Source: Dioscorea cayenensis subsp. rotundata (taxonomy: Eukaryota > Streptophyta > Magnoliopsida > Dioscoreales > Dioscoreaceae). Taken from it: 64,000 nucleotides of DNA. The first letter of the stretch is position 1; every line of letters starts with the position of its first letter. The stretch lies in the NCBI RefSeq assembly GCF_009730915.1, contig NC_052489.1, positions 22,437,916 to 22,501,915 of the forward strand, given 5' to 3'. Below the pieces are notes generated by a model that ran no database searches, was not told the DNA's origin, and saw only the letters and a program-made list of their open reading frames with translations. This document shows positions 5,435 through 55,828 of this stretch, piece by piece. The position numbers and the translations under genes were made by a program.

Positions 5435-6385
5435 CTAAATTGTGGTATGTGATATCTTGCACTCTTGTATGGCCCCAAAAATCCTTTCATTGTAGGATAC
5501 CCGGAATCCACAAGGTAGTATTTTTCCTACAAAAAAATATAATACAATAAAAAAATAAAAAAATAAAAACATAGATAATACAATTAATTTCAAATAAATG
5601 TGAACCTTCGAGTAGTGAGGAAACTTCAAAGAAGGATTTCTCAAAGCCTCCATTAATATACATTTGTCATGTGCCGAACCCTCCCAACCAATAAGTGCAA
5701 ATGTGAAGCACATATTGAAGTCACATGCGGCTAGAATATTTGTTGAGGTGTACCCTTTCCTGTTCATAAATGGAACTTGTTTCTCAGCAGGGACAAGAAT
5801 GGCCACATATGTTCCATCTATTGCACCAAATTAGTCTTTAAAGTAAGGCCAATATCGAACATCACCATGGATGTAATCCTCCACATCTTTGAAATTTTCA
5901 TCTACCGGTTTGATAATATCATTTCCAAGTTTGTGGACAACTTTTAGCACTCGATGAAATTGTCTGTGTACTGTTTCTCCAGAATGTTGAAATCTCTCCT
6001 CCACATTTCTATAAGTAGCTCATTGGCCAAGTATATACAAAAACATTATCACTGATTCTTCTACAGTAACATATCTCGTATGTTGTAAACCATACTTTTG
6101 AGTAAGCTCATCCACCAATCTTCTAAATATAGTTTTATTCATCCGGACTTGCTCAAAGAAACGACTGTTTGATCCATTTAGTATTTCATGAACCCACCTA
6201 TGGCCAGTTAATGAAGATCTCCTCTTCTCTCCCTTCAACATTGACTTCATAAACTGGTATTGTGCAGTTGCAGCACATGCATACATTCGTCCAATGTAGT
6301 CATCCATATGCATATTGTTAGCCTCTTCTTCTGAATCAGACATTGGTTCTTTTGATTCTGTATCTGAATCAGATAAGAACTCCAT
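5435..6385 (-). pseudogene. PIF/Harbinger transposase (DDE_4 type), degenerate and C-terminally cut
   Basis: This is the nuclease gene of a Harbinger-class DNA transposon on the minus strand. The N-terminal part (6385-6020) starts MEFLSDSDTESKEP and contains a helix-turn-helix-like region (MNKTIFRRLVDELTQKYGL). An in-frame stop follows FLYILGQ. The frame then continues through [16 protein letters not shown], a second stop before FGAIDGT, and the DDE core. The first Asp is in AIDGT, the second in GWEGSAHD, and the third in YYLVDSGYP after an intron of about 80 bp (donor after HYSK, acceptor TTTTTGTAG). Soon after [11 protein letters not shown] the gene runs into a CAA/TTG microsatellite and the C-terminal helices are missing. 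It is not functional. It probably worked with the Myb-like gene upstream. Confidence 0.85.
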
Positions 6386-10787: not shown

Positions 10788-10854
10788 TACGACACCATCG
10801 AGCACAATGATATGAGGCTAAGATCCAGAAACTTAGATTTGTTTCCCGCGCTCC

Positions 10855-12261
10855 ATGGATTCGAGGTTGCTTGCGGCGCGGAAATGTCTCGTTGCTTGCA
10901 AAACTCTAACCCAAGTTCTACCTTGCTCTTCCAACCATTGGAGATGGGAGCGCTCGTTTCACCTCCAATCTCCATCTCCACCATCTTGCTCCCAAAACCC
11001 TAGTTCTAGCTCTCTCTGTGTAATGATCAGATCTCGAAACCCCCCCAAATATTGCTCCCGATTTCTCTCAAGTTTCTCTCAGAAATTCCGTCGAACACCT
11101 GGTCGGCAATCCATTAGTGCGGGCATTGATCGGGAAGAAGTGAGTGAAATCGTTGAATTGATTGGAAGAGACGTTGCCGACGCTGAATCCAAGCTAAATG
11201 GTATGCGTTTGAGGCTCTCCGATGCTCTTGTCTCCGAGATTCTTCGTATTTCCAGTGCTCGTCGCATCCCTGTATTGCGTTTCTTCATTTGGGTCTTCAA
11301 ATCTCACCCTGATTTCAAGCCCAGCGCGGCAATGTATAACCAAATTGTGGATAATCTCGGTCGTTTGGGTGATTATGGTACTATGGATGTCTTGCTGAAT
11401 GAGCTTTCTTCAAATGGGCATTGCTTGACCGAAAAAGCCTTCGCTTTTCTCCAAGAAAGAGGCGATTTTGATGTCAAGGAATCTACGGGAAGAGTTATTG
11501 AAATTCTAAATAGAGTGGGAAGGTCTTGTCGAGGTTCTGGGATTTACTCGTTGATTAAATTGTTTTGCTTGTCGAGATCTTTTGATCTTGCGATGTTTGT
11601 GATGGAGGAAACATCTAAATGTACATCTTACTACAATTTGCTTATTGCAGCAAAATGTAGATATGGTAGTTTCCAAGATGTTCACAATATGTTTGATGAA
11701 ATGAGAAGGTTTGGTTGTGAGCCTAGTACTAGTTCCTATAACTACTTGCTCGGGAGCCTCTTCAAAAACAAGAGATTTGTTGAGGGTTGTGAATTGCTTC
11801 AGAGGATGGAAGAGTTCGGTTACTGTCCAAATCCATTGACTTTTGAAGTGATTGCTTTTCATGCGTGCAAGGACAACAGGATGGATGTAGCAATGGAGTT
11901 CCTTAACCGGATGTTGGTGGAAGGGATTAAGCCAAGATACGCTATGCATGCGGCATTCATTAAGGGTTACTTCTTGTCTGAACGAGTTGAGGATGCATAT
12001 AATTATGTTGTAGATATGAGTGTGAGAGATCAATGCTCGAGCAACATGAATTACAGTTTACTTGCTAGTCTTTTTCGCATGTCTGGGAAGGTTGTAGAAG
12101 CAGCAAGGGTACTTCATGAGATGATGGAGAAGGGACTGAAACCCAATTTTTCTATCTATATTAAGGTTATGAAGGACCTACATAGTATGACCAGGGGTGA
12201 TTTGGCTTTACAACTGAAACCCTTGTATTCGAAGTTTAATCCAAGTGTACATATTGGATGA
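10855..12261 (+). CDS. Pentatricopeptide repeat protein, P class, probably mitochondrial
   Basis: This single-exon gene encodes 468 residues from the first ATG. P-class PPR proteins bind organelle RNA sequence-specifically and act in its stability, splicing or translation. From about residue 150 onward the protein is a series of degenerate 35-residue helical hairpins. Clear ones include YYNLLIAAKCRYGSFQDV / MFDEMRRFGCEPS, SYNYLLGSLFKNKRFVEG / MEEFGYCPN and MNYSLLASLFRMSGKVVEA / MMEKGLKPN. There is no E, DYW or SMR extension. A second in-frame ATG at 11023 starts MIRSRNPPKYCSRFLSSF, an Arg/Ser/Phe-rich stretch typical of mitochondrial presequences, so 11023 may be the real start (412 residues). 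The frame is intact. It has no intron, as is common in this family. I cannot name an orthologue. Confidence 0.9.
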   Translation: MDSRLLAARKCLVACKTLTQVLPCSSNHWRWERSFHLQSPSPPSCSQNPSSSSLCVMIRSRNPPKYCSRFLSSFSQKFRRTPGRQSISAGIDREEVSEIVELIGRDVADAESKLNGMRLRLSDALVSEILRISSARRIPVLRFFIWVFKSHPDFKPSAAMYNQIVDNLGRLGDYGTMDVLLNELSSNGHCLTEKAFAFLQERGDFDVKESTGRVIEILNRVGRSCRGSGIYSLIKLFCLSRSFDLAMFVMEETSKCTSYYNLLIAAKCRYGSFQDVHNMFDEMRRFGCEPSTSSYNYLLGSLFKNKRFVEGCELLQRMEEFGYCPNPLTFEVIAFHACKDNRMDVAMEFLNRMLVEGIKPRYAMHAAFIKGYFLSERVEDAYNYVVDMSVRDQCSSNMNYSLLASLFRMSGKVVEAARVLHEMMEKGLKPNFSIYIKVMKDLHSMTRGDLALQLKPLYSKFNPSVHIG

Positions 12262-17934: not shown

Positions 17935-20900
17935 CTAACGCACTGTCCTGTTTCTTCCTGAGGTCAAAATCTGCTCAACATTGTACTTTGTGTATATTCT
18001 AGTCTCATTCTCCTTCCACCATCGTTCTGCTTGCTTCTCACTAAAATGCTTCCGGCTGTGCAAAGAATCAGAAAATATCATGTTAGATGACATGTTAATC
18101 ACAATTTTTACACAAAAATGTACATCATAAGAGAATTAACTGTGGATTACCTAAATCGGACGCGTTTCAGACCTCTCTGACCACTTGGCAATGCAATGAA
18201 TGTAATGTAAACACCAATCTCATCTTGTTCAACCCATTCTTCTTTAGATCCATTGATTTCATTCGTTCTTCTATCAGCCTTGGTTACTAATGTACCATCA
18301 GTTGATCTTGTTTCATGCTGAGACTTTACCACACTGCCGGCTCCTGTTAAACCATTAGATGATGGTCGAACTGAACCTTCCATTTGCCTTCCTTCCATAA
18401 TCCTAGCATCATGTGACAAATGAGAACCAACGAGAATCGTCTTGGAATTGCCTGTTTCTGAGAGTTCTGTTGGGTGAATGTTTTCATCAGGTTCAGATCT
18501 TATGTTGTTTGTTGGTTGTGCTGTCGAAGCCTTTTCTGATAGCACATTCATCTGAACAAATTAAAACAAGGGTAAATGTTAATGGGTTTCCTCTGTATTC
18601 TCTGTATTGGAAAATTTTTTAACTCAGTGAATGTTGTTGATCCACTTTAATAAAGAGACTTGTTAAAGAATCACTACAAAATGAAATATGATGACTAGAT
18701 GGAAACTTCCTTAAAATATTTTTACGGCATAATGCCTTCTTATAGAATTAAAGGCTAGAAAGAATGGTTGAAGGTGAAAGTATACCAATAGCATTCATGT
18801 TGATAACAAAACAGACAAGCACAACAAAAGCGATAATCCTTCTATGTAAAATATGAATTAGATAAGCAATTAGGACCAACCTGATGTGTGAGGACTTTGA
18901 TAACATCTTTTGCTGCTTTGCACTTTGCAGCTTCATCTTTTGATAGCAACCATGTCTCCTCAATTCTGCGCTTATAATGTTGAAGCTTCTGACTTCTATA
19001 TTGGCATTGTTGTTCAAGCACCGTTGCCTAGCAAAGAAGCATCAGGTATCTATTAGTTTTAAAACATATATTGGATAATGTTTGATGGCACAATGATGGC
19101 TGAATTCATTAAGACAATGAAAGAGCATCAAAAGTATCAAGAAGTTATAGCTATAGTGTATACGGGAATTGTTTATGGATTACCTCAGCATTCAGTCGCT
19201 TAATTTCTTCGGTGAGCATCTTATCTAAAACGTTCAAATCTTGTTTCAAGGAAGTAGCATTTGGAGGAAAAGATTCCACCGAAAGCGGGCTTCCCCATGC
19301 ATGAACATGAGAAATGTCAGATATCTCTTTATCAGAAAATGGTATGATGCCATTGTGTTCATTGAATTGTGGAGGGCATGGGACCTGCCCCCATCTTTCA
19401 GTACTACTAATGAACAGTGCAACTGGACCTTGATCATGCTTGTTGCTGCCTTGTGTTCTCATTGCTTCTTCTTCATTTGATTTGGTTTTCGATCTATTTG
19501 GCCCTGAGAATAGTGTTTCTTGCCTGATTACCTTTGATTCAGACAATCCCTTTCTCGATAAAAATGGTAATCTTGGGCTTGCAAGTTCAGTTCTTGATTT
19601 AAGATATGGTACTTTTGTCAGCTGAACAAAGCATGGATCACAAACACGGCAGGATTTGCTCTTATTCGGAGCTAAAGATGCGTTCATAGCTTTCTTACTG
19701 CTACAAGCATGGCAGAAAGCAAATCCACAGTTGTAGCAATTATGTTTCTTTCTAGTGAATCCAAAATCCATTTTGCATCCACTGCAGATGGATTGGTCTT
19801 TACTAGACATCGATTTGTGAGAGCATATCGCAGCAGTGAAACTGGACCCGCACGCTATACTCCGCACATACCGATCTTCCAATGCTTCCACCAAAGCCGG
19901 AGAATTTCTGTCATTAACATCACCTAGCCCAAGTCTTCCATTTGCACCTTTACCCCAAGTGTAAACTTTTCCTTTTGTTGTCAATGCCGCAACGTGAAAT
20001 GAACCAGCGGAGATTTCCTTGACAAATTCAGCTTTTAGAAGACCTCCAACAGTTGCAATGGATCTATCTTCAACCTGAGGATTACCTAACTGTCCATTCA
20101 TTGCACTTCCCATAGTAAAAACAATGCCAGTAACAGTGAGTGCAACAGTTAACGTTCTTCCACAGGATACTTGAAGAAAATCACAATCCACAAGCGAAGC
20201 CACGCATGTTGGAAGAAGCTTTCTCTCCATATCACCATGTCCTAATTTCCCTTTATCGCCATCTCCCCAAGTGAATAGCTTGCCACCGAGAGCATTACTC
20301 TTGTAATGACTAGCCATGACTTCTACAATAGCAGCAGTATGCCAGGGTCCACAAGCGACAGCCTTAACACGCAATCCTTTCAATGACTGGACTTCTTTCG
20401 GTTCAAGAAAACTCTGTAGATTCCCATGCCCAAGAACTCCAAATGTTCCGTCTCCATATGTGAATAACTGCCCGGACGAAGAAACAATAGCTGTGTGCCA
20501 TTCTCCACACGAAACCTTTGATACATGTATACCATCCAATAAACCGGCCATTCTTTGAGGTAACCACCGGCTTCTTGAGCATCCTTCACCTGAAAGGCCA
20601 ATGCCATGACCGATGTCTCCCCAAACATAAACTTCACCTGAATTTGTCAATGCACAAGTGTGTCGAGCTCCACATGCAATTGAATTCACATTGACATTGC
20701 TTAGTGATTCAACAACTTTAGGAGAAGGAACACCCATGTTGATCTTGTGGCCTAATCTCCCACCATTCTCTTCACCCCAGCAGAAGACTTCACCTTGTCT
20801 GGTAACCAATGCAGCATGTTTTTGTCCACAAGAAATGTTCATCACATCAAGCATTCTGGTTGATTCCATTAATTTCGGCAATACAGAATCACAATTTGAG

Positions 20901-22655
20901 TCATTGGTTTCAAAGCCATTTAATCCACCACCCAGAATTCCTCCTACTCCTTCACCCCACATGAAAACATCTTTCAATACATCAGTGTCTTCTGCCGCAT
21001 TAGATTCACTATCAATTACCTGTATTCTAGAACTCGACATTCTCTGTTTTCTGACAATACTAAAATCTCTGTGATCCTTAAAATTGGTTGAGACCAAAAG
21101 AGGTGATTGAGGCACCATTTTTTCCACAATCAATTGCATATCCGATAAAGATTTTTGTCGTGAAGAATGAAAGATATCAGGAGAATCCAATACTCTATCA
21201 GAAATGTATCTTTCTAGTATCGACCGAGGAGGACTCCCATAGAGACTGCGCACCTTCAAAGGAAAATTACCAAAAGATTATTGCAGAGAATGTAAATCAG
21301 TACTAAAACATGGTGAAAGTCCATGATAATAATTCTTCCAGGATTTACTGAAAAAAATAATTGCAAAAAATTTCTTCTACACCTTTGAGAGCTTCGGTGG
21401 ATCTTGCAAGAGTCCAAGATTGTTCTTCCTCCGGGAATAGCCCATTGGGCTATTAATGCAACTCTGTGCATCTCTTGCATTTCTTAGACTCATCAAAGGT
21501 CTAGGGTGATGAAAACAAGACACCAATGCTGTTAAGCCTAGAAACCAAGTTTCAGCTTGTTCCTTATCTTTGCAAATCTAAGTAAGAGGATAACAAGATT
21601 GAAGTAAATTAATATAACAGTAAATAAAAGTGCATAAAATAGATGTTCGATTATTAATTGAAAATTACCAGGTCAAGTGATTGTTGGCCATTTAGGTATA
21701 TTAATGAAAAGGATTGAGATTCCTTTCCTGGTTGAGGCTGCCTTAGAAAATTTATCTGCAGAATTAAGCAATTCATCTGATGAAAACATAAAAACCAAAT
21801 GACAATCAAATCAATATTCACTAATTCAAGTTGCACATACAGTTTTTTGGCCAAATACAGTCTTGGAGACAGCACTCAACTTCAAGTGTTTTTCCTTTTC
21901 TCCTGAGTACCAAATTAGAAGTTTCTCATCCTGAAAACAAGAATGACCAATTAACCAGCCTGCTTCAAGTAACATGTAACTACCACCAACATCATTAAAC
22001 ACCTTTTTTGACATCACAAATTGCAATGGAACTGTTTTAAATTTTTTTTTTACATTTTTTCCACAAGAATGTTTGTGTTCTGTCCATAAGGCATGTGTAA
22101 ACCTTTTATCTCAAATGAAAATTCACCAAAAAACAAAAGGAAGGAAGGAAGAAAGATTAACAGCCAAAAGCCACACAAAAAAGGGGAAAATATCAACATT
22201 TGGTTTACATTTACTTTTTGGCATAAAAAAATTTAGTATGCATACCGAAGAAAGTCTGAAAGGACAGAACTTGGGCTTGCCTCTCCTCCCACATTTCAGA
22301 AGATGAGCACCTTTCTTCAGAGCAACAAGAGCCTTTTCAAGATATAAAAAAAAAAAATCAGTGGGCACAGACACACCATCTCTGATTTCCATTACTTACC
22401 AAGGTTTAACAATGCTAGCACACTGAAAGGATACTATTTGTTCACCATTTTGAAAATCTAAGCCCATTAGATCTCATTTTAACATCAACATGAAAAAAAA
22501 ACCTCTGTTCTCTGAACACCCAAAAATCTTATATGAAAAACAGAGTAGTAACACAAAAATTAAAAAAATTAAAAATTAAAAAAATTAAAATACAAAAAAC
22601 ACACCTTTTCAACACCTCTATCAGAAGGAGCAGTCCTCACACATCTCTCAGCCAT
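17935..22655 (-). CDS. PRAF-type protein: PH, RCC1 repeats, FYVE zinc finger, BRX domain
   Basis: Plant-specific RCC1-like protein thought to bind phosphoinositides (PH, FYVE) and act at membranes or as an exchange-factor-like scaffold. Nine coding exons (minus) join in frame: 22655-22605, 22332-22246, 21930-21841, 21755-21669, 21577-21383, 21253-19184, 19027-18881, 18551-18151 and 18055-17935 (1082 residues). The protein starts MAERCVRTAPSDRGVEK. A PH domain spans about 18-140 (LLIWYSGEKEKHLKLSAVSK). RCC1 repeats fill about 265-645 (GQKHAALVTRQGEVFCWGEE, CGARHTCALTNSGEVYVWGD and others). A FYVE finger follows at about 655-708 (CSGCKMDF, RKKHNCYNCG, CHACSSKKA, CRVCDPCF). Then come a coiled coil (EEIKRLNAEATVLEQQCQ) and a C-terminal BRX domain (VYITFIALPSGQRGLKRVRF, HFSEKQAERWWKEN). 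The central exon of 690 codons without introns is typical of the family. All splice sites are GT-AG and no frame breaks were seen. Confidence 0.95.
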
Positions 22656-29828: not shown

Positions 29829-30839
29829 AGTCGAGTATAAATTGAACTTATGAGGATTTTTAAGGCATTCTCTATTTAATCTTTATATTCTTTGCGGCTG
29901 ATTCTTGGAGGCGAGGTCGAGAAAGAAAAGAGACGAATCTCTAGCACCTAAGAAGCGATTTGGATAGGGATTCAGATCTACATTAAAGGGGATTGAAGAT
30001 CGTAGCTGTCGAGCTCATCTTGGCGGCGTGCGTGGAAGCTTCTCTAACGATTCTTCATTATGAGGATTGAAAAGGGGGTTTTCAATGCTTTCATATTTTC
30101 CTCCATTATTTGTCTTGTATGCTTGCCCTCCATTAATGGAGGCTAATTTGTAGATGTTTGAGTATATTTGAACTCAAGAGTTTATTTTCTTGACTTTGGT
30201 TGTTGGATCTTCTATACTTAATTAATTGATTTCTTAGTTGCAATCATATCTATTTGAGTCTAATTGTGTGATTGAATATTCGATTGCTAAAGAGGCGAAA
30301 GCCCTAGCAATCATACTTGGTATTGCTATGTGACGAGAAGAAATTCTCACATAGCATAGATTTACTGCAATTCGAGAAGATAGTGGGGTACGCCTTTGGT
30401 TAATGTATCTAGGAGACTTTGTATCCCATAATCCTTCATAGTAAATTGATGATAATTTCCGTGCTCTTTGCAATTATATGGAGCGGATTTTAGGAGAAAT
30501 TGGATTTTTGCTATATATTTGGATTAAGGGCAATCTCTCTAATTGGGAGAGATTATCTACTTAAGAGATTATCATTAGTCTACGATAAGGTTTCAAGAGT
30601 TTTAATACGATTGTGTGGATGTCTGTATCAGTTCTGCACCTATTTAGTTACACTTCGCCTAAGAAATCAAGGTTTGTATATTTCTGGAAACCTTTCAGTT
30701 CAAACACTACAAGAACATGCATATTTAGAAACACAACATTAGAAACGGAATTTCTTCCCTTTTTAATTGCAACCGATTAGAAACAGAATAAATCTCCCTT
30801 TCTAATTTAAAAAATGAACACTATGTTGTTTTCAATGTG

Positions 30840-31670
30840 TTACTAATAACAACGGATTAGAAACGACAATTTCTAATTTATTAAAATATTACTAATTATC
30901 CGTTTCTAATCCGTTGCTAATCAAAAGGGACTATAAACGGATTTAAAAAATTTATATTTTATTTAAATATTATTAAATATAATAAATATTTGTTTCTAGT
31001 CCGTTTCTAATACAAAGGGACTAGAAACGGATTTCAAAATTCATATTTTATTTAAATATTATTAAATATTATAAAATATATGTTTCCAGTCCATTTCAAA
31101 TACAAAGGGATTTGAAACAGATTTAAAAATTCATATTTTATTTAAATATTACTAAATATTATAAAATATCCATTTCTAGTCCGTTTCTATTAGAAAGGGA
31201 CTAAAAATGGATTTAAAAATTCATATTTTATTTAAATATTATTAAATATTATAAAATAACCGTTTCTAGTTCGTTTGAAATACAAAGAAATTTGAAACGG
31301 ATTTCAAAATTCATATTTTATTTAAATATTATTAAATATTATAAAATATCCGTTTTAGTCCATTTCAAATATAAAAGGATTAGCAAAGGATTTCAAAATT
31401 CATATTTTATTTAAATATTATAAAATATTCATTTCTTGTCCCTTTCTATTCAAAACGGACTAGAAACGGATTTAAAAATTCATATTTTATTTAAATATCA
31501 TTAAATATCCGTTTCTAGCCCCTTTCTATTATAAACGGACTAAAAACGGATTTAAAAATTTAGATTTTATTTAAATATTATTAATATTATAAAATATCCG
31601 TTTCTACTTTGTTTCAAATTGAAAGGGACTAGAAATGGATTTAAAAATTCATATTTTATTTAAATATAAA
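30840..31670. repeat. Sub-terminal tandem repeats of the CACTA element (~90 bp unit, about nine copies)
   Basis: The phrase CATATTTTATTTAAATAT recurs about nine times at 80-92 bp spacing. Between copies lie paired CCGTTTCTAGTCCGTTTC and GACTAGAAACGGATTT motifs that are inverted relative to each other, so each unit can fold as a hairpin. A less regular set of the same GAAACGG motifs occupies the other end (about 35350-35720). Confidence 0.9.
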
Positions 31671-31753
31671 ATATGAATAAAATTCATATTTTATTCCAAC
31701 CGCCTTTTCACCATCAAAACGTTCTCCCACTCCAAACCCTAGAAACCCTAACA

Positions 31754-32899
31754 ATGGCGGACCACCTTCGATCGGCACCGCTTCTGCCAAGAAGAAAACC
31801 AAGCCAATCCCAATCCCACTCTCAATCCACCTACGACGACCTCTGCAGCTTCTGTCTCAGCCTCCACTTCCTCTGCCTCTACCAAAACTCCGGCAGCGGC
31901 ATTTGGTGAACCCTAACATCATGGGATCTATTTTTTATCCTCTTCCTCATCGTCCCCGTGATCTCCCACTTCCTCCTCTCTTATTCCCCAACCCGCCGCT
32001 CCTTCGACACCATCATCGGGCTCTCTCTCATCGCTACCTCCACCCTCTCCTACCTTACTGATGCGGACTAGATTGATGAGCTAGCTTGCGCCTACATGGA
32101 CAAGTGGGACGCGATGACCTAGGCGGGGTCATTTTTGTAATTTTCTTGATTGGCTAATTTTGGTGATCAGAGAACCCCATTAGATGGAAAACGGGTCAAC
32201 AAACACAAGTCAAGAGCTTGCTATGCAAGCTCATGAGTCACACCCTTTTTCGGCCAAATTCCATCATCTGGGCCTCGAAAACAGCAATTTTGTAGTTTAT
32301 GGAAAGATTTTCTCCATCCATATCTTGGGCTGTGGATCTCTGATTGAGACGTTATTTTTGGTATTCACTATGTTTGGTTTTTAATTTTAATTCTATGATG
32401 TCAATCGAGAATTTTCTATTTTTGAAAAATTTCTGATTTATTTCTCTTTTAGTGTTTTCTTGTTGGTCTATTTATTTGTAAGCTTTCGGGCTATGAAGGT
32501 AGCTTTGGATTGAAATAAAATTGATGTGTTCTTTGTTTTCCCTCTAAATTCCTAGGCATTCTTAGACTAAACAGGATTTAGATTTTCATTATGTTGTTGA
32601 CTTGGGCATTCTTAGACTAAACAAGTCCTCAACCTTATCTCCACAGCGTCACTCACCCTCTCACGTTTCATCCGTCGTTACGGCCTCTACCGCTTCCTAG
32701 CCCTCGATAAAGTCCACAGCGAGAGCGATCACATCCGTCTCGACTACACAACCTAGCTCAACCGATCCTTTCGTCTCCTCTCCCTCTCGTCGCCCCTTGC
32801 TTCCTCCTCGAGTCCATCTACAAGATCTGGTGGTACTGCACAGATGCCGGTCGAATCCCCATCATCGGTAGCTCTGTGGCCATCGACCACTCCGCCGAG
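31754..32899 (+). pseudogene. Captured fragment of a DUF3537 (plant multi-pass membrane protein) gene
   Basis: Inside the CACTA element. ATG at 31754 opens MADHLRSAPLLPRRKPSQSQ, then TYDDLCSFCLSLHFLCLYQ, as at the start of plant DUF3537 proteins. After a stop the frame continues with hydrophobic LFFILFLIVPVISHFLL and SYSPTRRSFDTIIGLSL. About 500 bp of unrelated sequence (about 32060-32640) interrupts. Then RRYGLYRFLALDKVHSESD, LNRSFRLLS and ESIYKIWWYCTDAGRIP appear, ending at a likely original splice donor (GAG|GTACCC, 32899). Several stops and the interruption rule out function. The family assignment comes from memory of conserved YG-L-FL-LDK and YKIWWY blocks. Confidence 0.75.
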
Positions 32900-33632
32900 G
32901 TACCCTAGTTTGATTTCCCTATTTCCTTTGATGCTTGCATATGTCATGCCCTTTGTTTCTAGAGAACAATCCTTATAGTTTTTTTTAACATATTTTTCCT
33001 TGACAATTGATGCTATTAGTTGCTGCGATCCGGTGTCTGCTGAAATTCTAGGGTTTTGGATGTTCTTTTAACGGTGATGATGCATATTTTTTAGGAGTTA
33101 GCGTTGTTTTCATCGACTTTATTTAGTTAATGTGTGCCAATACCTAGTTCTGGTTGATAATTGGCATTGCAAGTTCAACATCGGATTTATAAGCTTCAGT
33201 GAGAGCATTAGGGATAGGTTTTCATTTTAATCTTCAGATAACCCATCAAAAATGTATCGTGACATTTATGCTTTGCTTTTTAGGGCCGTCAAAGATTTTT
33301 GCTAGGTGGATTTTTTGCTTGCTTTACTAGTAAAATTTCAACACTTCCTTCTTCCCTATGTTTTTTTTCCTTTCTTTCTGTATATTTTGTTTGGCATTTT
33401 TTAGAAGCGCAAGCAAAATTATTGTGTTTATTAGATTGACTGATTTGGGTTATAGATTGTGACAAATTTGTTTTGGTTTTCAACTACTCAAATGGCTTGG
33501 ATCTTCATGCCGGTCTACCAAATCTTCATGCCAATTTTCCATGAATACCAAACTGTTTAGATTGCACTTAATTTGAAAACTGTGAGATGCATCGTCTTTT
33601 TGGAAGATCATGGTGATAGATCCTTCATGTTA

Positions 33633-33706
33633 TTGTTGGTATTTTTGAAGATCGTGGAATAACTACTAATTCTTTCTTGTGCCTTAGCTCCTGAATAATT
33701 GATATG

Positions 33707-33755
<49 letters not shown>
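33633..33755. repeat. (TG)n microsatellite inside the CACTA element
   Basis: A pure TG run at about 33715-33753. The surrounding 32900-34320 is probably intron or flank of the captured genes; no further coding block was recognised. Confidence 0.7.
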
Positions 33756-34321
33756 TTTAATCTTAATTTACTACCGAGGCAAGGCCAGGCCACAATTGAT
33801 TTTCTTTCAGTTCAAACTATTTAACTTTTGAGTTGAAAATTCATGATTGCATTAATAGAAGAATAGGGAAAAAAGTTTTGAGGTTATTCTATTGGTTATG
33901 ATGGTTTATGATGAGGAATATGCTTTTTGTTGATAACTAGTATAATTGTGAGTAGGAATTGATATGGTTTAATTAAATCTAATGATAGTGCATGATGAAC
34001 ATTGAAGCAGATGACACTGCATTAATGTTAGAACATATTGATGCTTTTAATCTGTTTGTATGCCATATTTATCTATTTTAGCTTTTTTTCTTTTCTTTTC
34101 TTTTTTTTTTCATATTGTGCATTTCTATGACAGGACTCCCTCCTATGATAATCAGATTGGTTTATGTGGGTAAACTTCATTGAAATTTGCTGATTTTCAT
34201 GCAACTTTTTTGTTGGGAAGATATCTCCTTGTCTTAAGTATCTGCCAAGGTACAATGTGTTAAATCAATTTAAATTTAAGCTTGTTTTCACTAAACTTTC
34301 TTCAGTTTTACTGGATCATTT

Positions 34322-35020
34322 GTACAGACTCAACATTCGGGGGAATTGTTTTCAAGATAAAGAGTCCATCAAGCTGCGTTCTACTGAGCAATGTAGGGTG
34401 CCTTTTGTTAGGATTTCTTGTCATTCTTCAATTTTTTTTTAACTATACTCTGATTAACAGCCTTCGTTTTTGTCTTTAGGTTACTCTGTGAAAGCCAAAC
34501 AACCAATGAAAGCTATGAAATTGTTGTTCAATCACTTAGTATTTCAGAGATTCAATGGACAACATATTTTTAGCTTTCAAAATGAGGTAATTATTTCTTA
34601 ACACGTTTCTGCAAGAAAAAAATAAATTGATCATTGTGTGAGGGAACTTTAATTTAGGTTGCAAATTTTTCAAGGTTGAATAATGAGAACATAGGCAAGT
34701 TATTGGGGTATTGCAGAGAAAGTGAATCATTTTCAAAGATGTTTGTTTTTGAATATGCATCAAATGGAACATTATATGAGCATCTTCACTGTGAGTATTC
34801 TGTTATGGTTGCTTTAGTGACTGATACTTTTTATCATCTCAACAATAATATGTGTGGATTCATTATAGATGGTGGAGGATGCCAATTCTCTTGGCTAAGA
34901 CGAATGAAAATAGCTATTGGTATCGCTTGTAGACTAAAATATTTGCACACTGAACTCTAGCCTCCATTCGCAATATTTGAGTTAAACTCCAGTTCCGTGT
35001 ATATTACTGGAGATTTTTTC
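34322..35020 (+). pseudogene. Captured fragment of an LRR receptor-like kinase gene
   Basis: Inside the CACTA element. Near 34343 NIRGNCFQDKE resembles the end of an LRR ectodomain. At 34482-34586 a degenerate kinase N-lobe piece occurs. The best part starts after an acceptor at 34656: RLNNENIGKLLGYCRES, VFEYASNGTLYEHLH, then a typical GT...AG intron (34792-34868), then GGGCQFSWLRRMKIAIGIAC and LKYLHTEL followed by a stop and PPFAIFELNSSSVYITGDF. These match the kinase N-lobe to the start of the catalytic loop region of plant LRR-RLKs of the At1g63430 type (family recalled, not searched). The catalytic core is absent and the gene is dead. Confidence 0.8.
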
Positions 35021-35029
35021 TAAAGGCAT

Positions 35030-35193
35030 GCAATGATATTGCTAACACTGGGTATTGGAATTGCACTGACCATTTGCTACTTACTATATATGATGGTGTC
35101 TATTGTCATTGTTGGCCTGGTGCCATATCTTTCAATGGACTCGGACACCTCGATTTCATCTGTGTTTGCTAGAAATGGTGTAGATTGGGTAGT
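35030..35193 (+). pseudogene. Captured exon of a cationic amino acid transporter (CAT) gene
   Basis: Inside the CACTA element, right after the kinase fragment. A frame from 35030 encodes AMILLTLGIGIALTICYLL, MMVSIVIVGLVPYLSMDSD and TSISSVFA, which match a transmembrane segment and the following loop of plant CAT-family transporters (VGLVPY then MDPDTPISSAFA in relatives). It ends at a likely original donor (GTAGT|GTAAGT). Only one exon is present, so it cannot make a transporter. Confidence 0.75.
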
Positions 35194-36060
35194 GTAAGTA
35201 GGTCTTTTTAATTTTAGAAAATTTACATAGCAGGTTTTTGTATAATTTACAGGGATATAATTTTTATTTTATTTTTTTTATTATGCTTGAATTTTAGAAA
35301 CATATTAAAAAGGGATTAATTTGTTTTAATATTTTTTTTTAAAAAAATAATTTTAGAAACGGATTAGAAACAAAATTGGTTATGTTTTCAAAGCAGCATA
35401 ACAAAAATAAAACAAAAAATATTCCGTTTGAAATCTGTTCCTAATTTTTGTAACGGTAACAGTTTTGTTTCAAATATGTTTCTAAATTCAGAAATGAAAT
35501 TATAACGGCATTTAGAAACGGATTACAAACATAATTATTCCGTTTTAAATTTCAAAAGTTAGGAACGGTTAGGTTTATGTTTCTAGTCCGTTGTTAAATT
35601 TAGAAACGGAACAGTTTACTGTTTCTATTTAAATTAGAAACAAGGGGTTTTGAAACAAATAAATTCCGTTTTAAACCCATTTCTAAATGGCATTAGCAAT
35701 AGATTAGAAACGAAAAATGTTGTTTTTAAACTATAATTTTCTTGTAGTGAAATAGGATCACATGTTTAGACAACCATTGTCTTGTGCCTCATAACATAAC
35801 CCTAGAGGGATGTTATGCAGGACATCGCTTTTGATTTCTCTCCTATTACTTCCCGTATTTTCTTATGTTCATTTACTTTTATTCACACACACACCACTCG
35901 ATCATTTAGGCTATTTTTTGGGTCTAGAGTCATTACTAGTATTCACCTCTTTCTTTGTGGACCGATACTCTGCACTTATACACATTTTATTACGCGATCA
36001 ACACGTACACATGCATCCCTATCATATGCATACATAAATATTTTAAAATTAAATGAACTA

Positions 36061-37892: not shown

Positions 37893-38295
37893 TGTTATAA
37901 ACAAATATTTTAATGGATGCCTACTGTAGCAATTCACTGTAGCAGCCGGCATTACTATAGTAACTTCTAGATATCATACATGGCAGTACGCAACATGTAG
38001 TGACCGCCCATGTGGTAATCATGAGCGACGCACGTCTTTCATTACTATTCCACCAACGAGTATTTTTTGGACCGTCGGATCGAATCGATCGCGGCGTTCA
38101 TTCAACTCTTGTAACCCTATAAATACCCCTCATTTTTGTATATTTTTGAGATATAGAAAAGAGAGAAAGAAAAGAGAAAATAAAAGAAGAAAGAAGAAGA
38201 AGCTAATTCTTCAGGGTTTTTGGGTGTTTGGTAAATACTCTGGCTCTCTATTCTTATTACTATTTTTTACATTTATAACATATATATTCTTAATA
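37893..38295 (+). repeat. 5' LTR of Copia-1
   Basis: It starts TGTTATAAACAAATATTT and ends ATATATTCTTAATA. It carries a TATA-like CCCTATAAATACC at about 38116-38128. Compared with the 3' LTR, the differences cluster where the 3' LTR has CTGTAGCAGCCG, CCAGG and CCTGG (see findings). Confidence 0.92.
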
Positions 38296-42000: not shown

Positions 42001-43225
42001 GAGACCGAAATAAATGATATATTCATCTACAATGTGGCTACGAGATATAGAAATAAATACCGATAATGATCCGAGCCACGATCCATTGAAGAATGTCGAC
42101 AAAGAAATGATTGGCCAAAATGGAAAAGAAGCTATCCGGTGAGCTAAATTCCCTATCAAAAGCGTGAGGTGTTTGGGCCGATAGTGCCAACACCGGAAGG
42201 GATAAAACCGATCGGTTATAAATGGGTGTTTGTGAGAAAAAGAAATGAAAAATAATCAAATTATGAGATACAAAGCAAGACTGGTTGCTCAAGGTTTTTC
42301 TCAAATGCATGGTATTGATTATGAAGAGACATACTCTCCTGTAATGGATGGAATTACTTTTTAGATTTTTTTAATTGCCATGGCGAGAAGTAATAAATTA
42401 GATATGCGGTTGATGGATGTTGTCACGAGCATATCTGTATGGATTACTTGAAAAATGACATATATATGAAAAATCCACGAAGGATATAGAAAAAAACAAA
42501 CATTACAAATAATCATCATTTATACTCTATTAAATTACGAGAGATCTCTTTATGGGTTAAAAACAATGCTGGACGGATGTGGTATAACCGTCTCGAGTGA
42601 ATATCTTATAAAAAGAAGGGTACCAAAATGATAATATATGTCCATGTGTGTTTATTAAAAAGTTATACTAACGGTTTTTGTTGTGATAGCGAGTATATGT
42701 GGATGATTTAAATCTTGTAGGTACTTCTTACGAAATTGCAGCTATGCAGATCATATCCGAGAAAAAGAATTTGAAATGAAAGATTTGGGAAAGACCAAAT
42801 TACGTCTAGGGTATACTAAATCGAGCACTTATCCTCGGGAATATTTGTGCATCAATCAACCTATCTGAGAAAAAGGTCTTTGAAGAGATTCAATATGGAG
42901 AAGGCTTATCCATCGAGTACGCATGATGGTCGTCCAGAACTCTTGATGTTCGAGAAAGATCCATTTTCGCCCACGGAAGAAGGAGAGATCATTCTTGGTC
43001 CAGAAACTCCATATTTAAGTGCAATCGGTGCATTAATGTATCTTGCAAATAATACGAGACCAGATATAGCTTTTGCAGTAAATCTTCTAGCAAGATACAG
43101 TTCTACACCGACACGAAGACACTGGAAAGGAATAAAAGATGTGCTACGTTATTTACGAGGAACTACAGATCTGGGTTTATTCTATCGACAAGAATCTTCA
43201 TCCAACCTCACAGGTTTTTCTTGAT
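39080..43225 (+). pseudogene. Copia-1 gag-pol, broken
   Basis: The pieces follow in order. Gag (about 39085-39860) includes YLTIEDPR and TFTTFHAR-like blocks. The zinc knuckle CYRCGTEGRW-EICGTPKH lies at 39894-39941. A protease-like IIDCGTTHTIF is near 40185. The pre-integrase block HERLGHPG is near 40625. Integrase (40815-41150) includes GDICGPIHPSCGPFRYFM and IKTIRLDNA. Reverse transcriptase (42120-42800) has [20 protein letters not shown] and the YVDDL catalytic box near 42697. RNase H (43013-43220) has YLSAIGALMYLANNTRPDIA and RYLRGTTDLGLFY. More than ten frame changes or stops occur. Lineage within Copia was not determined. Confidence 0.88.
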
Positions 43226-43920: not shown

Positions 43921-44325
43921 TGTTATAAACAAATATTTTAATGGATGCCTACTGTAGCAATTCATCACTGTAGCAGCCGGCATTACTATAGTAACTTCTA
44001 GATATCACTGTAGCAGCCGCAACACTGTAGCAGCCGCCCATGTGGTACTGTAGCAGCCGCCGGTACTGTTACTATTCCACCAACCAGGGTATTTTGGACC
44101 GTCGGATCGAATCGATCCTGGCCGTTCATTCAACTCTTGTAACCCTATAAATACCCCCTCATTTTGTATATTTTGAGATATAGAAAAGAGAAGAGAAAGA
44201 AAAGAGAGAAATAAAAGAAGAAAGAAGAAGAAGCTAATTCTTCAGGGTTTTTGGGTGTTTGGTAAATACTCTGGCTCTCTATTCTTATTACTATTTTTAC
44301 ATTTATAACATATATATTCTTAATA
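43921..44325 (+). repeat. 3' LTR of Copia-1
   Basis: It matches the 5' LTR over its whole length and ends TTCTTAATA followed by the TAATT duplication. It keeps four to five regular CTGTAGCAGCCG units (43952-44072) that are scrambled in the 5' LTR. The TATA-like CCCTATAAATACC lies at about 44141-44153. Confidence 0.92.
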
Positions 44326-49892: not shown

Positions 49893-50175
49893 TGTTGTAT
49901 ATGGCTTATATACAAGGGTGAATGGGCATATGGGAGGCAGCAAGATGGGTTGGCCATGGGGTGCAGGGGCAACGCCTTGCGGTACAATACAAGGGTACTT
50001 TGGTAAATTGTACTGGGTAGGGTTTCTATTTATGCATAATTCAATTCTAATAAGAGAATCGACAACTACTCCACTCCCAAGGACGTAGGTATACTCTGTC
50101 GAATCTCGTTAAATCTTGTGTCTTTGTGTGATTACTTTCATGTTTTTCTTTTGATCATTGTTAAATTTCTCTACA
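49893..50175 (+). repeat. 5' LTR of Copia-2
   Basis: It starts TGTTGTATATGGC and ends TTTCTCTACA, directly before the primer-binding site. Shares CAATTCTAATAAGAGAATCG and GGACGTAGG blocks with the 3' LTR. Confidence 0.88.
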
Positions 50176-55553: not shown

Positions 55554-55828
55554 TGTTGTATATGACTCATATTCAAAGGTGAACGGGCAGAACGGAGCTA
55601 CGGATGGTATAGGGGTATTTTGTTAAATTGTAACGGGTAGAGTTTATATATATATATATATATATATTCATGTGATATGTAACCCTAATTCAATTCTAAT
55701 AAGAGAATCGACAGCCACTCCGCTCTCGAGGACGTAGGCATATATATTCTTCCAAACCTCGTTAAATCTCTTGTTTTTGTGTAATTGCTTTTGGGTTTTC
55801 CTTTTGATCATTGTTAAATTTCTCAACA
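55554..55828 (+). repeat. 3' LTR of Copia-2
   Basis: It starts TGTTGTATATGACTC and ends TTTCTCAACA. It holds a TA microsatellite at about 55648-55668 that is absent in the 5' copy. Confidence 0.88.

What the first reader, a model, noticed from the sequence alone, without database searches (positions are those of the whole stretch)
30705..35749. Pack-CACTA element that captured pieces of three unrelated host genes in one orientation
Within one 5-kb CACTA element are a DUF3537 membrane-protein start (31754-32899), an LRR receptor-like kinase piece with its intron (34322-35020), and a cationic amino acid transporter exon ending at its old splice donor (35030-35193). All are on the plus strand, in series, with splice-site remnants. 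Multiple same-sense captures could yield chimeric or antisense-regulating transcripts and small RNAs against the parent genes. Multi-gene capture by CACTA elements is known in plants, but this combination is not one I know.
Basis: partly seen in the sequence, partly recalled or inferred. Interest (0 to 1): 0.8.

Follow-up and report, generated by a model that had tools for sequence, protein, structure and literature searches.

The report
Yam CACTA transposon carrying gene scraps
This is a non-autonomous plant jumping gene, apparently from a yam, that carries decayed pieces of three unrelated host genes; it is real, but gene-capturing transposons of this kind are already well known in plants.

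Summary
Window 30705-35749 is a 5,045-bp element with perfect 11-bp CACTACAAGAA terminal inverted repeats, AAA on both flanks and subterminal repeats, including a nine-copy ~90-bp array. No transposase domain was found in 25 ORFs of 50 aa or more. It carries plus-strand pieces of a DUF3537 gene, an LRR-VI-2/At1g63430-type receptor kinase gene and a cationic amino acid transporter gene. The best protein hit of each is from Dioscorea, so the host is a yam or close relative.

Corrections: a 568-592-bp unidentified segment splits the DUF3537 piece. The kinase piece starts at 34134, keeps four whole GT-AG introns and lacks an internal stretch. About 1.25 kb is unassigned.

Amino-acid-changing C-to-T changes outnumber the reverse 25 to 6; 20 of the 25 lie in CG/CHG contexts. 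This looks like a fossil of DNA methylation, suggesting a silenced passenger rather than a working chimeric gene. CpG is not depleted overall, which weakens this reading.

Multi-gene CACTA capture has close precedents (soybean Tgm-Express1; maize Pack-CACTA). Transcription, small RNAs and copy number could not be tested: the genome search did not complete nine times.

The parts
30702..30704 (.). left copy of the 3-bp target site duplication, AAA
   Evidence: paired with 35750-35752
30705..30715 (+). left terminal inverted repeat CACTACAAGAA
30878..31667 (+). 5' subterminal tandem array, nine copies of ~90 bp, most units holding a 45-nt quasi-palindrome of the CCGTTTCTAGTCC / GGACTAGAAACGG motif; presumed binding sites for a TNPA-like protein
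   Evidence: tandem repeat score 932; in 8 of 9 units 32-40 of 45 positions are self-complementary, the ninth as sampled 16 of 46; single-strand fold -195.8 against -112.8 kcal/mol for 20 shuffles, none as low; binding role inferred by analogy
31690..31753 (+). probable captured 5' untranslated leader of the DUF3537 gene
   Evidence: inference from position directly before the matching ATG; no donor DNA to compare
31754..32059 (+). DUF3537 gene piece A, donor residues 1-106, one in-frame stop
   Evidence: tblastn 78% over 106 residues to D. alata P0001; PF12056
32060..32651 (.). unidentified segment between the two DUF3537 pieces (ends at 32627 if the weaker part of the tblastn match is counted)
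   Evidence: no Pfam match for tested reading frames; none of the 4 hits covers its letters; not a GT-AG intron at the DUF3537 break by eye
32652..32887 (+). DUF3537 gene piece B, donor residues ~107-183, one in-frame stop and a frameshift
   Evidence: tblastn 83% over 54 and 92% over 36 residues, 32628-32786 and 32789-32896; PF12056
32888..34133 (+). unassigned T-rich non-coding stretch with a (TG)n run; ends in a splice acceptor, so at least its end is probably the kinase gene's intron
   Evidence: 33% GC, 42% T; no convincing tblastn match to the donors (best E 3.8); acceptor CTATGACAG|G
34134..34249 (+). kinase-gene exon piece 1 (end of LRR part), frameshift and stops
   Evidence: tblastn donor residues 192-230; boundaries
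34328..34392 (+). kinase-gene exon piece 2
   Evidence: tblastn and GT-AG boundaries
34480..34586 (+). kinase-gene exon piece 3, carrying an internal deletion (transmembrane and juxtamembrane part missing)
   Evidence: residues 253-370 of P0004 unmatched by tblastn
34658..34790 (+). kinase-gene exon piece 4 (N-lobe of pseudokinase domain)
34869..35025 (+). kinase-gene exon piece 5, one in-frame stop
35028..35193 (+). cationic amino acid transporter exon piece, ending at a GTAAGT donor
   Evidence: tblastn 84% over 51 residues to P0124, 35042-35194; PDB CAT4 5.1e-14; start before 35042 by eye
35353..35738 (-). 3' subterminal repeats with GAAACGG motifs
   Evidence: GAAACGG at 35356, 35515, 35603; D20 family
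35739..35749 (-). right terminal inverted repeat
35750..35752 (.). right copy of the target site duplication, AAA

Best explanation
A non-autonomous CACTA (En/Spm superfamily) transposon in a Dioscorea genome, i.e. a Pack-CACTA. Its ends (terminal repeats and TNPA-like subterminal sites) let a transposase made elsewhere move it; its inside is host DNA. Genomic DNA, introns included, was taken up from at least three genes in separate events, trimmed and joined. The likely route is insertion of related elements near each other followed by aberrant excision, or faulty gap repair. The passengers are no longer coding, and the copy seems to have been DNA-methylated for long, decaying by C-to-T change. 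Shown: ends, target duplication, the three pieces, retained introns, broken frames, substitution bias. Inferred: mobilisation in trans, capture route, methylation. Likely effect on the host: little; any effect would be through small RNAs or splicing noise.
For: Ends and motifs. Pieces and their Dioscorea top hits. No transposase domain among 25 ORFs of 50 aa or more inside the element. Four GT-AG introns kept, so the capture was of DNA, not of mRNA. D. alata-named hits on contigs of three different lengths. C-to-T/G-to-A 25 against 6 reverse and 9 transversions, opportunities 247, 304 and 1348, binomial p=7.6e-5 for direction; same direction in each piece: DUF3537 13:2, kinase 7:3, CAT 5:1. 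20 of 25 in CG or CHG context against 75 of 247 opportunities, Fisher p=1.7e-6; CHG alone against CHH p=5e-6.
Against: CpG is not depleted overall in the captured exons (observed/expected 0.79; DUF3537 part 1.04; neighbouring PPR gene 0.76, RCC1 gene 0.50). The substitution test sees only amino-acid changes, infers direction from donor proteins without donor DNA, uses present-day neighbours for context, left out 6 ambiguous or multiple changes and the sites where the references differ (22 in the slightly longer blocks), and used one reference only for the first 49 residues. No other copy of the element was found in the window and the genome could not be searched, so mobility after capture is unproven.
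Confidence: 0.9

Rival explanations
1. The pieces act on their parent genes: the element is transcribed and its RNA feeds small RNAs that damp the DUF3537, kinase or CAT genes.
For: All pieces lie in sense order with splice sites kept; the terminal array folds far better than shuffles as one strand (z -12), which could feed small RNAs if transcribed. Methylation-type decay is what small-RNA targeting would leave.
Against: No RNA data. Identity to donor proteins is only ~83-87% at residues where the references agree, which limits small-RNA matching. Sense order would give sense RNA, not antisense.
Confidence: 0.08
2. Chimeric gene: an exon-shuffled transcript starting at the DUF3537 leader or in a flanking gene is spliced through the kinase and CAT exons, as in soybean Tgm-Express1.
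For: DUF3537 start codon and probable leader are present; four intact introns and a perfect GTAAGT donor; precedent PMC1947982 (passages).
Against: In-frame stops in DUF3537 and kinase pieces and frameshifts in the joined kinase exons. I did not look for a host gene spanning the element, and no donor or expression data were available.
Confidence: 0.05
3. Not one capture series but a chance nest: separate duplications or insertions brought the pieces together and the CACTA ends merely flank them.
For: The DUF3537 piece is broken by 568-592 bp of unknown DNA and 1.25 kb is unassigned; no second copy is known.
Against: Both ends match perfectly with AAA on each side, and subterminal motifs are almost confined to the element (13 of 14), so the whole 5 kb was most simply inserted as a unit.
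Confidence: 0.05

Closest known systems
Tgm-Express1 (soybean CACTA element, PMC1947982; passages seen)
   Same: 5.7-kb CACTA element made of exonic and intronic pieces of five unrelated host genes, introns kept
   Different: Sits in an intron of F3H and its pieces are spliced into chimeric RNAs; other host, other genes, other subterminal motif. Here transcription is untested and the pieces are decayed.
Pack-CACTA of Arabidopsis and maize (PMC8903248 and review PMC13317346; passages seen)
   Same: CACTACAA-type ends, no transposase, host coding DNA inside; [quoted passage not shown]
   Different: No Dioscorea example appears in the passages seen (term absent in both texts); copy number here unknown
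Tgmt* (soybean 20.5-kb CACTA, PMC2613891; passages seen)
   Same: Asymmetric, palindrome-forming subterminal repeats, 13-bp CACTA ends, 3-bp target duplication
   Different: Encodes transposition proteins; different repeat motif; no gene capture noted in the passages seen
Chenopodium CACTA elements with captured genes and satellite arrays (PMC8978399; passages seen)
   Same: Captured gene fragments and tandem arrays within CACTA elements
   Different: Those elements also carry their own coding sequence

Membership tests
CACTA (En/Spm, CMC) superfamily | terminal inverted repeats beginning CACTA | tested here: met
   11 of 11 identical, CACTACAAGAA
CACTA (En/Spm, CMC) superfamily | 3-bp target site duplication | tested here: met
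   AAA on both sides; AAA is common here, so weak on its own
CACTA (En/Spm, CMC) superfamily | short repeated motifs in both orientations inside the ends | tested here: met
   GAAACGG 13 of 14 in the window lie in the element, at both ends; 90-bp array
CACTA (En/Spm, CMC) superfamily | related autonomous element with TNPD/TNPA genes in the genome | not testable with these tools
   The genome search unanswered
Pack-CACTA (Pack-TYPE) | no own transposase | tested here: met
   25 ORFs of 50 aa or more scanned against Pfam; apart from the captured families, one sub-threshold match (F-112, E=0.014) in the AT-rich array
Pack-CACTA (Pack-TYPE) | host gene DNA between the ends | tested here: met
   three gene pieces
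Pack-CACTA (Pack-TYPE) | several copies in the genome sharing the captured DNA | not testable with these tools
   none in the window; genome not searchable

The most novel reading that the evidence does not exclude
The captured pieces make the element a trans-acting silencer: its sense-ordered, spliceable transcript yields small RNAs that at once dampen an amino acid transporter, a receptor pseudokinase and a DUF3537 membrane protein, with the C-to-T fossil recording long-term methylation drawn by that same RNA.
Probability: 0.04. Interest if true: 0.6.

Novelty: new member of a known kind. Interest (0 to 1): 0.22.

Why it matters
It adds a multi-gene Pack-CACTA from what appears to be a yam, a crop lineage outside the species of the precedents seen here. 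The context-specific C-to-T bias in captured exons suggests a way to read past methylation of gene-capturing transposons from sequence alone: captured exons have living parents to compare with. If three chromosomes really supplied the pieces, it also dates as at least three capture events in one element.

Tried and rejected
Rejected: the unknown segment inside DUF3537 as an intron of the donor (by eye no GT at the left break and no AG at the right break). Rejected as a strong signal: one orientation of three pieces (1 in 4 by chance). Tried without result: Pfam on reading frames of the unknown segment and part of the unassigned stretch; a protein search including two translated stretches of the unknown segment, whose 4 hits cover only the CAT part; a DNA pattern of the array in viral contigs, 0 matches; Rfam on the window, 0 matches; other copies in the window, only microsatellite and low-complexity matches; an alignment of the two DUF3537 break ends, only a 9-bp match. 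Paper searches for Dioscorea with CACTA as whole words gave 7 papers; only listings seen, none titled on yam transposons. A search on deamination in Pack-MULEs returned a listing, not followed up. The substitution count was run twice: 26 C-to-T with slightly longer blocks, 25 with trimmed blocks; the report uses the latter. A first context background (166 of 580 cytosines) included a few bases outside the matched blocks and was replaced.

Full report
What is there. At 30705-35749 lies a 5,045-bp stretch that begins CACTACAAGAA and ends with its exact reverse complement, with AAA on both sides. These are the only two exact copies of that word in the window; one-mismatch matches are no more common than chance would allow. 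The motif GAAACGG occurs 13 times in the element, in both orientations and near both ends, of 14 in the window. The left end holds a tandem array of nine ~90-bp units (30878-31667). In eight of nine sampled units a 45-nt core is quasi-palindromic (32-40 of 45 positions), in the ninth as sampled it is not (16 of 46). As one strand the array folds to -195.8 kcal/mol against -112.8 for 20 shuffles. Palindrome-forming, asymmetric subterminal repeats are known in CACTA elements, where they are taken as binding sites of TNPA-like proteins (PMC2613891, passages).

The captured pieces. DUF3537: PF12056 at 1.2e-8 and 2.2e-11; all 3 hits of the protein search are Dioscorea, the best D. alata at 78%. Kinase: 540 hits among 600 candidates, 120 listed, the best two D. 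alata (82%) and D. zingiberensis (81%); many others are named At1g63430-like, and one D. sansibarensis paralogue is named RLK-Pelle-LRR-VI-2. The best solved structure is a maize-coded pseudokinase, 'drought responsive inactive kinase 1' (1.4e-22). Transporter: PDB CAT4 at 5.1e-14; 4 hits in the protein search, three Dioscorea and one Brassica carinata. Host genus is inferred from these three best hits; no species is claimed.

Anatomy, by tblastn of the donor proteins on untouched window DNA and splice boundaries. DUF3537 residues 1-106 at 31754-32059; residues from ~107 (from 96 with a weaker stretch) to ~186 at 32628/32652-32896, with a frameshift near 32787. Between them are 568-592 bp with no match. 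Kinase residues 192-252 at 34135-34394 with one intron, and 371-495 at 34499-35017 with introns; four whole introns (78, 87, 71 and 78 bp) all run GT to AG, and an acceptor precedes the first exon piece. Residues 253-370 have no tblastn match; by eye a dozen of them survive with a lost base. The CAT piece follows within a few bases and ends at GTAAGT. The pieces keep introns, so capture was of genomic DNA. D. alata-named hits lie on contigs of three different lengths (20.6, 22.7 and 22.9 Mb); since that column is per cluster, this is good but not final evidence for three chromosomes.

Not autonomous. None of 25 ORFs of 50 aa or more within the element matches a transposase model; beyond the captured families the only match is a sub-threshold one (F-112, 0.014) in the AT-rich array.

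Decay. At residues where the Dioscorea references agree, the element keeps 155 of 178 (DUF3537), 83 of 98 (kinase) and 39 of 47 (CAT). Of the single-base-explicable changes, 25 are C-to-T or G-to-A, 6 the reverse and 9 transversions; 6 more are ambiguous or multiple. By opportunity 45% of transitions should be C-to-T; 81% are (p=7.6e-5). Of the 25, 11 lie in CHG, 9 in CG and 5 in CHH contexts, against 29, 46 and 172 opportunities at unchanged codons (p=1.7e-6). CHG bias is the more telling, since in plants CHG methylation marks silenced DNA rather than gene bodies (own knowledge). Against this: the captured exons are not CpG-poor (0.79, against 0.76 and 0.50 in two neighbouring genes), no donor DNA was at hand, and contexts are today's.

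How it most likely works. A defective CACTA element moved, when it moved, by a related element's proteins acting on its ends. Host DNA inside came by repeated capture. Published work on Pack-CACTA proposes tandem insertion of related elements and excision of the outer ends together with the DNA between (PMC8903248 and PMC13317346, passages; the primary paper was not held). The abutting kinase-CAT join and the unidentified DNA between the DUF3537 pieces fit several rounds. Nothing here shows that the pieces do anything now.

Known or new. Tgm-Express1 of soybean is a 5.7-kb CACTA element of five gene pieces with introns (PMC1947982, passages), and maize Pack-CACTA commonly hold several loci (PMC8903248, passages). 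This is a new member of a known kind. The whole-word search for Dioscorea with CACTA gave 7 papers, seen as a listing only; I make no claim that yam cases are absent from print.

Noticed in passing
37893-38295 and 43921-44325: Direct repeat, 89.6% over 414 bp, about 6 kb apart, with an ORF at 42820-43224 that reads like Copia RNase H (by eye; no Pfam match): probably an LTR retrotransposon.
   Followed up: partly
5435-5830 (-): DDE_Tnp_4 (PF13359, E=4.8e-8) fragment, PIF/Harbinger-like transposase remnant.
   Followed up: no
10837-12261 (+): 474-aa open frame with PPR repeats, probably a host gene.
   Followed up: no
18147-21277 (-): RCC1-repeat, FYVE and BRX domains in neighbouring open frames: a host gene of the plant RCC1/FYVE/BRX type.
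   Followed up: no
50037-50175 and 55686-55828: 143-bp direct repeat, 83% alike, 5.6 kb apart; perhaps remnant LTRs or a dispersed repeat.
   Followed up: no
32553-32623: Within the unidentified segment, a ~19-bp word GGCATTCTTAGACTAAACA occurs twice about 52 bp apart (read by eye).
   Followed up: no
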